In this document: in pieces, positions 2,412 through 41,544 of the stretch
How positions within the stretch are numbered: position 1 is the stretch's first letter
Layout: every line of letters starts with the position of its first letter
Source of the DNA: Planctomycetaceae bacterium
GTDB lineage: Bacteria; Planctomycetota; Planctomycetia; Pirellulales; Pirellulaceae
Direction: 5' to 3'
Assembly (NCBI GenBank): GCA_027487375.1
Contig: JAIYDQ010000313.1
Coordinates: forward strand, 1 to 41,544
DNA: 41,544 bases
Position numbers and translations under genes: made by a program
Notes under the pieces: generated by a model
What the model saw: only the letters and a program-made list of their open reading frames with translations
The model's database searches: none
What the model was told of the DNA's origin: nothing

Positions 2412-2644
2412 GAAAACTTCCCCCCAAAGCCACAGTGGGCCAGACTGAGAAAACAAAAACGGACGTATCTCAGTGTGTAGTATCGGAATCCGTACAACCT
2501 GCACTCAAGGAAAAATCGGCACCGATTTCAGGTTGTTGGTCGATTCGTCTTAGGCTCAATACATTGCAATCTGAGCCGACGGCGGTAGCCGCGTTAAAGG
2601 AAGTTCTTCCAAGTGCGGATGGCGAGTCGTTTGAACTCCGCTAA

Positions 2645-2746
2645 CGATTGAGCATGATGACCAGTCGTAGGCTAGGCTTCCAGCCTGTCGGTTTCGCTAT
2701 CGACAGGCTGGAAGCCTAGCCTACGGCAATCTGACTAGCTAAAGCT
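2645..2746. repeat. GTAG-headed palindromic repeat, family A, copy 1
   Basis: Perfect 25-bp arms lie at 2666-2690 and 2701-2725, with a 10-nt loop. Each arm begins CGTAG and contains the mini-hairpin GGCT-TCC-AGCC. The flanks (cgattgagcatgatgacc on the left, gcaatctgactagcta on the right) are shared, in reverse orientation, with the copy near 26.2 kb, so the repeated unit is about 100 bp long. The stretch 2412-2868 between two genes holds nothing else recognisable. Confidence 0.85.
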
Positions 2747-2868
2747 ACTTTAGAATTGCACCAAAAGTGTCCTGCTTCGAAACTTACGCATCGGGTTAAG
2801 AAAAACTCAGCGTTTTGCGGTTGGTTGGCGTGTACCAACTAGACCTTCCGAAAATCTACCGCGGCCGC

Positions 2869-11609: not shown

Positions 11610-11692
11610 CGAACAGGTCGCTGGTGGCTATCGTTTTAAAGATTCAGACCTAGCCACATTCACGTTCTGCCCAATCGCCCTCGGTTCGGATT

Positions 11693-11791
11693 TTACTTCT
11701 GCTTGGGAAGCGGCTTTGGCCCCTTCTTTTTGTCCTGCTTAGGCTTCATCGCCTTCTTATCGTTTTTGCTGCTGTTATTTCCTTTTCCCAT
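11693..11791 (-). CDS. 32-residue Lys-rich protein with consensus Shine-Dalgarno
   Basis: The ATG at 11791 is preceded by AAGGAG with a 6-nt spacer, the best ribosome-binding site noted in the window. The product begins MGKGNNSSKNDKK and ends KKGPKPLPKQK, about 40 percent lysine, strongly basic, with no hydrophobic core. It resembles tiny basic ribosome- or RNA-associated proteins in composition (the MGKG start recalls bTHX), but it is not recognisable as bTHX. It sits alone in the 392-nt gap between the acyltransferase and the sugar isomerase, the rest of which (11792-12001) holds nothing clear. Confidence 0.65.
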   Translation of the reverse strand: MGKGNNSSKNDKKAMKPKQDKKKGPKPLPKQK

Positions 11792-12001
11792 GATGTTCTC
11801 CTTGACGAATCGGGCCTTAAACTGAATCCATCGCCCACGCGGGTTATCGACACCTTAAGGGTAGCAGACTCCCGCCGCAAGACCGTAAAAGAGTTAAGTA
11901 ATTTGATTCGAAGAGCACGCCAGACGGGCTGGCAACTTTGCCGTAACCAATCATAATTCAATACGCCCTCCCTCCAACCATTCTCTATAGGAACCCATCC
12001 G

Positions 12002-12883
12002 ATGACTCAGATTCTTGGACAGCTAATGCTACGACGACAATTGCTTCGAGCGGGTGCACTCGCGTTTGCAGTGCCTGCCGTACCCTCACTTTCGTTTTCG
12101 GCACAAGCATCAGCTCCCTCGGAAGAAGCCGATCCGTGGTTGGGATTAAAGGTGGGAGTCGCAACCTATACTCTACGAGAATTTCCCATTGAGGAAACAA
12201 TCAAAGCAGTACAACGCGTTGGACTGAAGTACGTCTCGATCAAGAACGTCAAAAATCACATCGATCTGTCGCATTCAAGCGAAGAACGAAAGCGCCGAGC
12301 TCAAATGTTTCGCGATGCTGGAATTACTCCACTGAGCGTCGGTAACATCCCGATGAAAAAGGGCGAAGAAGAAATCCGAGCGGCCTTTGAGTTCGCACGC
12401 GACGTTGGGGTCTCGACAATCGTTTGTGCACCTAGTCAAGACGCGATCCCAATACTGGATAAGATGGTCAAGGAATTCGATATCAAGGTTGCGATCCACA
12501 ATCACGGACCAGAGGATAAAGCAGGCTTTCCATCGCCATTCGATGCAATGAGAGCGATCGAAGGGGCCGACAAACGCGTCGGGCTTTGCATTGACGTTGG
12601 ACACACCGCCCGCGCAGGAGTCGATCCCGCAGATTCGATTATCAAGTGCCAAGACCGTCTTTATGATGTGCACGTCAAAGACATCTCCGCACTCGGTGAC
12701 AAGAATACCCCTATCGAAGCAGGTCGCGGAATACTCGACTCAAAATCCATCCTCGCAGCCCTTCTTAAGATCAAGTACCAAGGGCTAGTTGGCTTCGAGT
12801 ACGAGAAGGACGGCAAAGATCCTGTACCAGGACTGGCCGAGTCGGTTGGCTACAACAAAGGCCTGCTGGTTGGACTCAAGTAA
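12002..12883 (+). CDS. Exported sugar phosphate isomerase/epimerase-like TIM-barrel protein
   Basis: The protein has 293 residues and belongs to the AP-endonuclease-2/xylose isomerase-like family. The N-terminus carries a twin-arginine-type signal ([19 protein letters not shown], residues 10-28). The barrel contains [44 protein letters not shown] and [13 protein letters not shown], which hold the usual metal-binding His, Asp and Glu residues. Relatives act on keto-sugars and inositols in the periplasm of planctomycetes and Bacteroidetes. Some work with DUF1080 hydrolases in 3-keto-sugar metabolism, but the DUF1080 gene here is 5.5 kb away. AGGA precedes the start. The substrate is unknown. 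Confidence 0.83.
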
Positions 12884-12923
12884 CAATTGGTTCAGTGTTT
12901 GTACTTCAAGAAATGATTCGAAA

Positions 12924-13421
12924 ATGAATGAACCTATTGCCCTGTTTATCACTTGGCCTACCCATGGAACTTGGCTTATCGGTGACGATCGGGGATGGGT
13001 CGAACTTACCCACGGTTGGCAACTCCCGCCACCGTCGCGGGACCTGGAGTCGTTGTCTCGCATGAAAGATGATGTTTGCCTTCTTAGCACATCAGAATGC
13101 AGAATCGTTGAGAAGCAGATCGCCGAATCGTGCAATCATCGACGATGGACTTTACATGCCATCAGTTGCCGGAGCAACCACATGCATTTGGTCATTCGAG
13201 CAGTCAACACAAGCCCCAAGCAGATCCGAGAAGCACTTAAAGACTGGACAACGCGTCGGCTGAAAGAGCAATCCGATTCGAATCGAGACCAATGGTGGGC
13301 CGAGCGAGGGAGCATCCGCTGGATATCAGATCCGGATGAACTCAAGCTTGCAAAGCAATATGTAAATTCAACAAAAGAGTTCGAGAAAAAAGCCGACGGG
13401 CGTTCCGCAATGATCACCTAA
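12924..13421 (+). CDS. REP-associated tyrosine transposase (RAYT), Y1/HUH family
   Basis: The protein has 165 residues and starts at ATG 12924, which gives the typical N-terminus MNEPIALFITWPTHGTWL. The HUH metal-binding motif is CRSNHMHLVI (H86, H88). The helix DWTTRRLKEQ follows, then WWAERGSIRWI, and the probable catalytic tyrosine is Y146 in AKQYVNST. RAYTs are single-copy relatives of IS200/IS605 transposases. They nick single-stranded DNA at GTAG-headed REP hairpins. No terminal repeats of an insertion sequence surround it, but GTAG-headed hairpins occur elsewhere in the window. It converges on the next gene with 8 bp between the stops. Confidence 0.87.
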   Translation: MNEPIALFITWPTHGTWLIGDDRGWVELTHGWQLPPPSRDLESLSRMKDDVCLLSTSECRIVEKQIAESCNHRRWTLHAISCRSNHMHLVIRAVNTSPKQIREALKDWTTRRLKEQSDSNRDQWWAERGSIRWISDPDELKLAKQYVNSTKEFEKKADGRSAMIT

Positions 13422-13429
13422 GTCTCGAC

Positions 13430-14197
13430 TTATTTGGCTTTACCAAGCGTCGCCGCGGTATTCACAAAAAATGGTAATGAGAATCCACTACTAGTCTTAT
13501 TTGGGTTCGTGGGTTTTGTGATCGAGGATTCTATTTCGGATTTGATCTGTCTCAGATAATCGACTTCGACAATTGGATTCCACGGAGACAGAGCCATCAT
13601 CACGTAGCTCTTTTTTAACGCGGCCAATAGGTCAGAAACCTTCTCGATTGCGATCGATTGTGTTGCACTTGCATTAGCCAGTGACGGCGTGCTTTGAATA
13701 ACGCGTCGAGCTTGATCAATAGTCGGTTCAGCGGCTAGCAAAACCCAAAAGACCATGGCCGCGGATAAACTTGTACTCGCTAAGCCCATAAGAAATCCTG
13801 CTCGGTGATCGCACATCCTGAAAGCTTCGTTTCTGCGAAGTAAAGCACCGACAACGATAAGAACGAGCGTCACAACCGCACCTGCTACGAATCCAGAAAT
13901 CATCAGCCCTGTCGATCGATCTACCGTTTGCTTCCACTGACTCTCAATAAACGGAACTAAACTATCGGCGGTTTGGCCTGCAAGTGCGTACCCAGCATAG
14001 AATCCGACCGATGAAGCGAGTGTCCGCCACATGCCCCATAAGTAACCAGCGATTCCACCGACTAGGACTGCCACAATAGTCGACAAAGCAACCCAATCCT
14101 TTACCGCCCAGCAGTGAACTCCGACGAAGCCGACAGCAAATAGAAAGATGACCGACAAGAAGGTGGTGATCGGAGAGCTTGATTCTGAATCTTTCAT
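13430..14197 (-). CDS. CvpA-like integral membrane protein
   Basis: The protein has 255 residues with about four to five transmembrane helices (residues near 10-30, 37-53, 58-75, 95-119 and 133-155). The fourth segment, followed by a charged loop and a GxxxGLAS-type helix (HRAGFLMGLASTSLSAAMVFW), has the layout of CvpA/colicin V production proteins. The C-terminal 80 residues are soluble and end near LPFFVNTAATLGKAK. The assignment is by topology and sparse motifs, so it is moderate. The next gene upstream on the same strand ends 212 nt away, so an operon is possible but not tight. Confidence 0.6.
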   Translation of the reverse strand: MKDSESSSPITTFLSVIFLFAVGFVGVHCWAVKDWVALSTIVAVLVGGIAGYLWGMWRTLASSVGFYAGYALAGQTADSLVPFIESQWKQTVDRSTGLMISGFVAGAVVTLVLIVVGALLRRNEAFRMCDHRAGFLMGLASTSLSAAMVFWVLLAAEPTIDQARRVIQSTPSLANASATQSIAIEKVSDLLAALKKSYVMMALSPWNPIVEVDYLRQIKSEIESSITKPTNPNKTSSGFSLPFFVNTAATLGKAK

Positions 14198-14281
14198 GTT
14201 TGTTACGCCTTCGCAAGGCAGAAAATATAAGACGATTAAAAGAATCGATTCTTAGCGATTTACTCGCTCTGAAAACTTTAG

Positions 14282-21983: not shown

Positions 21984-23702
21984 CTAAGTTGCGTTTGATG
22001 TGGTCGCCTTTTTGCCCTTGGACTTCTGTGCCGCAGCAAACAACGCGTTGATATCATCGATGCTAGCGACAAGTGACTCCTCGGCCACTTCTTCGGTTAC
22101 CTCTTTAGCCGCTTCCTTAACCGCTTCTTTTGCCGCAGGGGCTGAAGGCTGAGGCTCAGCAGCAGGTTTCTCTTCTGACTTCGTCGTTGTTGCCTTTTTG
22201 TTGCTTGCAAACAATGACGCAATATCATCGGCGGATACCTTCGAGTCAGGGCTCTCTGCTACTTTAGATTCGGTAGCAGACGTGCTCGATTCAGATGACG
22301 GTTGAGGGCTCGGTGTTTGTTCCGCAGGGGCTGTGGCAGGAGTTTTGGGTTTTGCCTTTTGGGCTGCAAAGAGTGCTGCGATGTCGTCGCCGGAGGCCTT
22401 TTCATCAGCAGCCGGCGCGGACGTTGTCGGCTTCGAATCTACAGCCGGCTCCGATGGAGCTACTTTGGGTTTGCTTTTCTGAGCCGCGAAAAGCGCTGCG
22501 ATATCATCACCGGAAGCTTTTCCATCGCTGGCCGGTTCCGGTGAATTGTTATTTGCCACAGGCGCCGCTTCGGTAGCGGCAGCCTTGGGTTTACTCTTTT
22601 GCGCAGCAAACATGGCTGCGATATCGTCACCAGAAGCTTTACCATCGCTGCTAGAATCAGGCGAAGCGTTTTGAGCATCTGATGGGGATTCAGCGGTCGT
22701 TGTCGTCGCTTTAGGCTTACTCTTTTGAGCAGCAAAAAGTGCAGCGATATCATCACTCGATGTTATCGCTTCTCCAGCAGCAGGTGCGACTTCGAAAGAC
22801 GGTGATTTTGCTTCTGAAGGAATCTCTGTTGGCGCGGTGTCAACCGCGCTTTCGATAGCAACTTCAGGGGCGGTTGTCGGTTGAACTTGCGTCGGCCCCA
22901 TTTCTCCGCGTGTCTGATTTCCGCCGCTGGTGATTGCAGCAGCGAGCAGCTCTTCCAACCGCTCCCAGACTCCCTCAACAAGTCGACTTTCCGGATCGAA
23001 ATCTTCAACAGCAACTTCGGTTGTTCCGATTGATACAGTTGTCGCGATTTCAGTTTCGCCCACAACAATCGGTTGGGCTGCGATCGAAAGCCGAGTCTCA
23101 TCGAGCAATTCACATGCGCTTCCCGAAGGAATTCCAAACAACACAACTGCGAAAGTGTGCTCGCTAAATCGGACAACAAGACCATGCACATTCAGTTGTT
23201 CATTAAGCTGATTCCCCACCTCGCGCAGTAGACGGTCACTGGTAATCGCACCGTGTTTACTCACCAACTCAGACCAGTTATCCACGGCTATCATCGACAT
23301 CTGAATCGATAACCCAAGCTGTACTTGAAGCGTACGCGTCGATTCTAGAAATCGGTTCAGTGAATCAACGATTGGCAGTCGCGTGATTGCATCTTGGTTC
23401 GGTTCGATAACCAGGGGTATGAGATCGGAAAGCGACGACGCAATTTGACAACGAGTATCGCTGAGTTTCCAACTGCTGATCGATGCATGATTAAAGAACT
23501 GCTTTGATGCTGCATCGAAGGCAAGCAATCGTAAGGTCTTCAATGAATCTTGAAATGGCTCGAGAGATTCAACAGCACCACAATGATTGGCATCCATTGA
23601 CTTCGAGACACCATTTTTACTGCTCTGTTTGCTTGGGTAGGCGATCGAAATGATCAGCAAAACAGCAGTCACTTCTGCGGCTAATGCTAAGTACTCGATC
23701 AT
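21984..23702 (-). CDS. Membrane-anchored degenerate GGDEF protein with six DDIxALFA repeats
   Basis: The protein has 572 residues. The N-terminal helix (MIEYLALAAEVTAVLLIISIAY) is a membrane anchor. Residues about 100-255 have a GGDEF-like fold, with DAITRLPIVDSLNRFLE at the start and VSIGTTEVAVED near the end. The signature site reads RFSEHTFAVVL (178-188) where an active enzyme has GGDEF, so diguanylate cyclase activity is very unlikely. The C-terminal 300 residues are Ala/Pro/Ser/Lys-rich linkers carrying six copies of a (S/G)DDIAALFAAQK motif. The motif resembles the N-terminal DEIDALL peptide of FliM/FliN, which binds CheY-type partners. A scaffold is inferred. Upstream on the same strand are lpxK and a sigma factor. 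Confidence 0.8.
   Translation of the reverse strand: MIEYLALAAEVTAVLLIISIAYPSKQSSKNGVSKSMDANHCGAVESLEPFQDSLKTLRLLAFDAASKQFFNHASISSWKLSDTRCQIASSLSDLIPLVIEPNQDAITRLPIVDSLNRFLESTRTLQVQLGLSIQMSMIAVDNWSELVSKHGAITSDRLLREVGNQLNEQLNVHGLVVRFSEHTFAVVLFGIPSGSACELLDETRLSIAAQPIVVGETEIATTVSIGTTEVAVEDFDPESRLVEGVWERLEELLAAAITSGGNQTRGEMGPTQVQPTTAPEVAIESAVDTAPTEIPSEAKSPSFEVAPAAGEAITSSDDIAALFAAQKSKPKATTTTAESPSDAQNASPDSSSDGKASGDDIAAMFAAQKSKPKAAATEAAPVANNNSPEPASDGKASGDDIAALFAAQKSKPKVAPSEPAVDSKPTTSAPAADEKASGDDIAALFAAQKAKPKTPATAPAEQTPSPQPSSESSTSATESKVAESPDSKVSADDIASLFASNKKATTTKSEEKPAAEPQPSAPAAKEAVKEAAKEVTEEVAEESLVASIDDINALFAAAQKSKGKKATTSNAT
22014..22760 (-). repeat. Six-copy DDIxALFA protein-repeat region
   Basis: DDI motifs occur at residues 317, 359, 399, 439, 492 and 549 of the protein above. 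The first four (about 22340-22760) are nearly identical, each about 16 residues ending KSKPK or KAKPK and spaced 40-42 residues. The last two are diverged and spaced 53-57. This suggests recent internal duplication of the first four. Confidence 0.8.
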
Positions 23703-26118: not shown

Positions 26119-26173
26119 TTCACCCGTATTCAACTCGGAAACGGGCGAATACTAGAGCAAATCTCAAGTATCT

Positions 26174-26279
26174 GTAGCTAGTCAGATTGCAGTAGGATAG
26201 GCTTCCAGCCTGTCGATAGTGAAACCGACAGGCTGGAAGCCTATCCTACTGCTGTTCATAATGCTGAATCGGTAGCTAC
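26174..26279. repeat. GTAG-headed palindromic repeat, family A, copy 2
   Basis: Perfect 25-bp arms lie at 26191-26215 and 26226-26250 around a 10-nt loop. The loop and both flanks match copy 1 in reverse complement, and short terminal repeats GTAGCTA/TAGCTAC close the unit. It lies between the ferredoxin gene and the terminator, in a 422-nt gap (26119-26540). Confidence 0.87.
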
Positions 26280-26325
26280 ATCAACCTAAGAATCGATCTA
26301 GTCCGACATCCGTTAGGAAATTCCG

Positions 26326-41302: not shown

Positions 41303-41476
41303 ACAAAACAATTTGTGCGATCCTTCCCGAAATCTTGAGCATAAGGAAGGTGAGATATCCAGGGACAAGGCTCTAAGACTTTTAAGTAATTTTGCTTGGG
41401 CTGTTTACAACTATGGCACGGTCCAGGCTACATGCTTGAGTTGTTAAATTCGTGCTAGATCGACTCTTAGGTTGAA

Positions 41477-41544
41477 GTAGCTCAGGTTTGAGCACGATGG
41501 CCAGTCGTAGGATAGGCTTCCAGCCCTGTCGGTTTCGCAATCGA
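41477..41544. repeat. GTAG-headed palindromic repeat, family A, copy 3 (cut by window)
   Basis: The left arm (41506-41531) begins CGTAG and has the GGCT-TCC-AGCC core with one inserted C, followed by the same loop start (GTTTCG). The left flank, GAGCACGATGGCCAGT, matches copy 1. The right arm is lost at the window end. Confidence 0.8.

What the first reader, a model, noticed from the sequence alone, without database searches (positions are those of the whole stretch)
2645..2746. Family A: three near-identical GTAG-headed palindromes, possible substrates of the resident RAYT
Copies at 2645-2746, 26174-26279 and 41477-41544 share arms, loop and flanks. Copies 1 and 2 have perfect 25-bp arms, each arm with a GTAG tetranucleotide followed by a mini-hairpin (GGCT-TCC-AGCC), and the two arms face each other as in BIMEs. 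RAYT enzymes are known to act on GTAG/GGAG-headed hairpins. The link to the RAYT gene at 12924-13421 is inference.
Basis: partly seen in the sequence, partly recalled or inferred. Interest (0 to 1): 0.72.

Follow-up and report, generated by a model that had tools for sequence, protein, structure and literature searches.

The report
REP palindrome pair carried inside MITE
The three hairpins are copies of a 148-base hitch-hiking element found at 80 or more sites between genes in this planctomycete genome: a pair of REP palindromes belonging to one transposase type, sitting in the middle of a miniature transposon of another type, so that two different enzymes may act on one repeat.

Summary
The palindromes are real, but the unit is larger than described. 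Copies 1 and 2 have perfect 25-27 bp arms with GTAG at both outer ends; copy 3 is cut by the contig end. Genome-wide there are at least 84 loci, none inside a predicted gene. Most are one bounded 148-bp element, TAGAGCAATTCT...[GTAG palindrome]...AGAATCGATCTA, with TA termini, C|TA..TA|G targets, imperfect terminal inverted repeats matching an IS630 element of a relative, and sister-species sites that lack it and keep a single TA. The spreading unit is an IS630-type MITE whose centre is a head-to-head REP dimer. The RAYT idea is right in kind but names the wrong gene: the window RAYT (12924-13421) is a class-3 enzyme whose relatives lack GTAG pairs, and it persists in a sister species without the element. 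The likely cognate RAYT (contig C72, 234 aa) has the GTAG-contact residues and lies between copies of the same REP. In related genera another outer palindrome carries at least six unrelated REP dimers at one central point. REP dimers inside palindromes were reported before (PMC3733652); the IS630-type carrier and cargo exchange appear new. All movement steps are inferred.

The parts
26153..26300 (+). Copy 2, complete 148-bp element: left end 26153-26191, REP dimer 26192-26249, right end 26250-26300; flanked C|TA...TA|G
26192..26249 (+). Core head-to-head REP dimer GTAG-GATAGGCT-TCC-AGCCTGTC / loop / inverted copy
2618..2763 (-). Copy 1 of the element; left end nearly complete, outer part of the right end lost (homology stops near 2640)
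2667..2724 (-). Core REP dimer of copy 1 (GTAGGCTAGGCTTCCAGCC variant, changed identically in both arms)
41456..41544 (-). Copy 3: right end and first REP arm; cut by the contig end (assembly breaks at the repeat)
12924..13421 (+).

Best explanation
Each palindrome is a head-to-head REP dimer that has become cargo in the centre of a non-autonomous IS630-type element (MITE). Step 1 (inferred): a RAYT of the GTAG type, here the 234-aa protein on contig C72, recognises GTAG plus the hairpin on single-stranded DNA and has placed REP dimers in the chromosome; naked dimers remain beside its own gene and at C298 and C92. Step 2 (inferred): one dimer entered the centre of a MITE. Step 3 (supported by anatomy and empty sites): an IS630/Tc1-mariner transposase acting in trans moves the 148-bp composite by its TAGAGCA... 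and ...TCGATCTA ends into TA, preferably CTAG, duplicating TA. Copies survive between genes, then decay, often by loss of one end.
For: Bounded 148-bp unit with divergent DNA outside it. At least 84 loci in the own genome; 41 keep both ends and most others keep the right end by a strict test. TA at both termini in 33 of 73 full-span copies, with outside bases C 24/33 and G 22/33; CTAG 15/33 against 5.4% background, p=4e-11. Orthologous sister-species sites lack the element and keep one TA at two loci: GATT-TA-AAAAA (L051) and GGCAC-TA-ATGCT (L061). A complete IS630 element in relative G024 ends TAGAGCAGACCTCAAGTAGTTGTAGC with a C|TA..TA|G target; the MITE left end matches 20 of 26 (0 of 86,933 background TA 26-mers reach 20), its right end 17 of 26. 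An IS630 remnant in the own genome ends TAGAGCACCTTTAAG (13/17). IS630 elements target and duplicate TA (PMC2170065). REP side: C72 RAYT scores 92.1 bits on NF047646 and its only PDB match is 4ER8, TnpArep, across W-Q-D-H-R; it is flanked by the same REPs on both sides without MITE ends. Homologous RAYTs carry their own genome's REP variant (G014, G043).
Against: No complete IS630 with these exact ends was found in the own genome (the only DDE_3 hit is a fragment at a contig start). The sister species is about 80-86% identical, so intergenic alignments around the empty sites are imperfect; only two of about 12 show a clear single TA. No MITE without a dimer was found in the own genome, so the order of assembly is not shown. 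Excision, cleavage and transposition were not observed.
Confidence: 0.8

Rival explanations
1. The 102-106-bp palindromes are BIME-like substrates moved by the RAYT encoded in the window.
For: GTAG heads and hairpins fit REPs. Class-3 RAYT presence and detected dimers co-occur among family genomes.
Against: The repeat unit is 148 bp with TA ends. Class-3 loci lack GTAG pairs (1/30) and several carry other palindromes. G001 keeps the gene but not the element. The co-occurrence may only reflect overall mobile-element load, and G025 and G026 have dimers without a detected gene of this type. The window protein lacks the WQ..D-H..R GTAG-contact motif.
Confidence: 0.06
2. The whole 148-bp element, ends included, is moved by the C72 RAYT; the TA ends are only conserved flanking DNA of a BIME.
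For: The C72 RAYT lies among the same REPs. Some copies lack one end right at the core edge, for example L024, L069, L075 and L083.
Against: REPs beside the RAYT and at C298 and C92 lack the ends, so the ends are not needed for REP spread. Inverted termini, TA, CTAG preference and IS630 matches are not expected of a HUH enzyme.
Confidence: 0.1
3. The palindromes were selected in place as transcription terminators or RNA-stability hairpins and do not move.
For: All are intergenic, where terminators also lie.
Against: Near-identical bounded sequence at 84 or more unrelated sites, and orthologous sites in the sister species that lack it. A secondary use as terminator is not excluded.
Confidence: 0.04

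Closest known systems
GTAG-superfamily REP head-to-head dimers (Di Nocera 2013, PMC3733652)
   Same: GTAG tag, short stem-loop, head-to-head dimer, intergenic. The paper lists GTAG repeats in the PVC group and reports REP dimers nested in longer palindromes in Anabaena variabilis (outer palindrome TATAGGA...TCCTATA), H. neapolitanus and T. roseum.
   Different: Here the outer palindrome is identified as an IS630-type MITE with TA target and empty sites, and in other genera one outer palindrome carries several unrelated REP dimers.
RAYT/TnpAREP with flanking REPs (REPtron; PMC2817692, PMC6006769, PDB 4ER8)
   Same: C72 gene: HUH motif, WQ..D-H..R, YIENNP, NF047646 above cut-off, same REPs on both sides.
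   Different: Planctomycete member with SHHH at the HUH motif where most relatives read NHVH; most of the REP dimers in the genome now sit in MITEs rather than standing alone.
IS630-derived MITEs (Correia elements, RUP; named in PMC2817692)
   Same: Short, terminal inverted repeats, TA ends, intergenic, no coding capacity.
   Different: The centre is a complete REP dimer with its own cognate RAYT in the genome.
Class-3 HUH proteins of Planctomycetes (PMC6006769)
   Same: Window gene 12924-13421: NHxH, W-T, and homologues with Y....Q.
   Different: No palindromes beside it in this genome or in G001; the foot reported for class 3 is CnGA, not GTAG.

Membership tests
GTAG REP (head-to-head dimer) | GTAG/GTGG head directly before a short stem-loop | tested here: met
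   57/63 and 61/65 heads are GTAG; in relatives the stem varies with compensating changes, e.g. CATAGGCT..AGCCTGTG and GTCAGGCT..AGCCTGAC
GTAG REP (head-to-head dimer) | Many intergenic copies | tested here: met
GTAG REP (head-to-head dimer) | Cognate RAYT flanked by the same REP | tested here: met
   C72 RAYT; not the window RAYT
GTAG REP (head-to-head dimer) | Binding or cleavage by the RAYT | not testable with these tools
   needs purified protein
IS630-type MITE | Bounded short element with terminal inverted repeats and no coding capacity | tested here: met
   148 bp; 23 designated terminal pairs over 28 bp, 89% of cells paired
IS630-type MITE | TA target duplication | tested here: met
   TA at both ends; single TA at two empty orthologous sites; alignments there are imperfect
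IS630-type MITE | Ends shared with an autonomous IS630 | tested here: inconclusive
   20/26 and 17/26 to the G024 element, 13/17 to the own-genome remnant, well above background, but no exact partner was found
IS630-type MITE | Mobilisation in trans by the transposase | not testable with these tools
   experiment needed
Substrate of class-3 RAYT (window gene) | Palindromes of the same kind beside the RAYT gene | tested here: not met
   none beside the gene in G000 or G001; 1 of 30 loci of this type with a GTAG pair

The most novel reading that the evidence does not exclude
REP dimers are interchangeable cassettes that RAYTs insert repeatedly into the central loop of palindromic MITEs, giving elements served by two unrelated transposases: a single-strand HUH enzyme loads the cargo and a double-strand DDE enzyme spreads it. 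In G015, G017 and G025 one outer palindrome (TTAGGATCGTTCGAGAAATAA.TGTCCGATTT...) carries at least six unrelated REP dimers at the same point.
Probability: 0.4. Interest if true: 0.72.

Novelty: new variant of a known kind. Interest (0 to 1): 0.52.

Why it matters
How REPs spread is an open question, since RAYTs have not been caught moving them in most hosts (my own knowledge of the field). If REP dimers ride inside IS630 MITEs, part of REP amplification needs no RAYT mobility at all. It would also explain why REP dimers have been seen nested in longer palindromes in distant bacteria. It gives a concrete test: does a RAYT insert its dimer into a MITE hairpin loop?

Tried and rejected
Window RAYT as partner: rejected (see membership test). 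PF01797 to list all Y1 genes: it missed the likely RAYT at C72, found only with a RAYT profile. Synteny of the window itself with G001: only 11682-14246 aligns over any length, so empty sites were found by fetching about 1.2 Mb of G001 and aligning all copies. Empty MITE in the own genome: none; solitary right ends at C484 and C206 look truncated. Covariation in the within-genome alignment is uninformative: the copies are too similar. Alignment A3 held residues I had added by mistake; it was discarded and remade as A4, and nothing rests on it. IS200-like genes in relatives: no systematic link to the dimers, though some carry an end hairpin containing GGCTTCCAGCC. L092, L091 and L074 also lack the element in G001, but their junctions are too diverged to read a TA.

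Full report
Observation. The palindromes exist as described. Copy 3 stops at the contig end. The half unit GTAGGATAGGCTTCCAGCC occurs 94 and 91 times on the two strands with up to 3 mismatches in a 5.46-Mb, 529-contig, 87%-complete genome, against 0 for the reversed-pattern control. Counts are lower bounds, because several contigs end inside a copy.

The unit. Alignment of copies with flanks shows a sharply bounded 148-bp element: TAGAGCAATTCTAAGGTAGCTGTAGCTAGTCAGATTGCA - 58-bp palindrome - AACTGGTCATCATGCTCAATCGGTAGCTACATCAACCTAAGAATCGATCTA, with unrelated DNA outside. The first 28 and last 28 bases form an imperfect inverted repeat. Of 84 loci, 41 pass a strict test for both ends, about 30 more keep the right end, and a few are naked cores. 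None lies inside a predicted gene, against 71% of random positions (an interrupted gene would be called as two ORFs, so this may overstate the avoidance).

Ends and target. Copies with TA at both termini have C before (24/33) and G after (22/33); CTAG is 15/33 against 5.4% expected. At the orthologous sites examined in G001, a species of the same genus, the element is absent. Two sites read clearly: G000 GATT-TA[element]TA-GTTCG against G001 GATT-TA-AAAAA, and G000 GGCAC-TA[element]TA-AAGCT against G001 GGCAC-TA-ATGCT. Complete IS630 elements in relatives start TAG[AT]GC and often sit at C|TA..TA|G. The G024 element matches the MITE left end at 20 of 26 positions and the right end at 17 of 26. 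IS630 enzymes insert at TA and duplicate it (PMC2170065; the CTAG preference of IS630 is the title of a paper cited there). The own genome holds one IS630 fragment with a related end. Inference: IS630-type MITE.

The cargo. Each arm is GTAG plus an 8-bp stem with loop TCC. In other genera of the order the same design recurs with compensating stem changes: GTGG-GATAGGCT, GTAG-CATAGGCT..AGCCTGTG, GTAG-GATGGGCT..AGCCCGTC, GTAG-GTCAGGCT-TTCC-AGCCTGAC, GTGG-GACGGGCT-TC-AGCCTGTC. Close variants occur in MAGs labelled Verrucomicrobiota, Deltaproteobacteria, Omnitrophota and Elusimicrobia. These are REPs of the GTAG superfamily (PMC3733652).

The RAYT. Two distant loci, L358 and L349, carry a RAYT directly beside this REP. 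A profile of them finds one gene in the own genome, on C72 (L403 1240-1944, 234 aa). It scores 92.1 bits on NF047646 (cut-off 80). Its only PDB match is 4ER8, TnpArep, aligned over W-Q...D-H..R, the positions that PMC6006769 links to GTAG recognition. It has a REP dimer and a single REP upstream and a dimer downstream, its stop codon lying in the GTAG of the latter; these copies have no MITE ends. G001 has no hit to this gene and keeps only AAGCCTATCCTAC at the junction, a likely deletion scar. Loci of this RAYT type have inverted GTAG-type hairpin pairs in 16 of 30 cases, against 1 of 30 for window-type RAYT loci, 2 of 30 for IS200-like and 1 of 29 for IS630 loci. The window gene is therefore not the likely partner: it is class 3 by its motifs, stays at one locus in both species and has no REPs beside it.

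Wider pattern. In G015, G017 and G025 another outer palindrome, TTAGGATCGTTCGAGAAATAA.TGTCCGATTT, carries at least six different dimers at its centre: GTGGGATAGG, GTACGATGGCC, GTAGCGAAAGTC, GTAGCCGAAGTC, GTGGCGTAAGC and GTAGCTACGGTC. PMC3733652 reported REP dimers inside palindromes in three bacteria without naming the carrier. The proposal that REP dimers are exchangeable cargo of MITEs is inference; no empty carrier was found in the own genome.

Verdict. What is shown: anatomy, copy number, intergenic location, TA and CTAG ends, empty orthologous sites, the REP-flanked RAYT. What is inferred: which enzyme moves what, and the order of assembly.

Noticed in passing
L448, L450, L451, L455, L458, L467 (G015, G017, G025): One outer inverted repeat (TTAGGATCGTTCGAGAAATAA.TGTCCGATTT...) holds at least six unrelated GTAG/GTGG-type REP dimers at the same central point; the family of the carrier is not established.
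   Followed up: partly
L531, L487, L535, L502, L510 (G001), opposite G000 copies L091, L080, L027, L068, L100: At about five intergenic sites where G000 has this element or its core, sister species G001 has a different REP pair (such as GTAGCAGAAGTCGTAAGACTTCTG...GAATTCTTACGAATTC), as if intergenic gaps are shared landing sites.
   Followed up: no
window:12924-13421: Class-3 RAYT-like gene kept at the same locus in two species without flanking palindromes; looks domesticated or decaying.
   Followed up: partly
L479:300-380 (G000 C298) and L218 (G001 C59): A naked REP dimer after the same gene in both species; the head differs (GTAGCATAGG against GTGGCATAGG), so the dimer probably predates the split.
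   Followed up: partly
L336 and L301: Tandem runs of 7 and 6 single REPs in the same orientation at 25-31 bp spacing (Roseimaritima sediminicola and a Planctomycetaceae MAG).
   Followed up: no
L349:889-1657: Elusimicrobia RAYT gene with copies of its own REP inside the reading frame, read as GSTGFQPV.
   Followed up: no
L161, L163, L168: IS200-like elements of relatives have a hairpin near one end (CTACCGGCTTCCAGCCGGTAG in L163) that shares GGCTTCCAGCC with these REPs.
   Followed up: no
L482, flanks of L080 and L101 (own genome): Other GTAG REP families in the own genome (GTAG-CAGCGTCTC-TCC-GAGACGC and GTAGTCAAGTCTCTCCGCAGACTTG).
   Followed up: no
L039, L049, L051, L027: The loop of the palindrome is inverted relative to the element ends in some copies, as expected from flipping between near-perfect arms.
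   Followed up: no
window:22324-22756: Coding repeats of about 120 bp in the gene at 21984-23702 (repeated SGDDIAALFAAQKSKPK).
   Followed up: no
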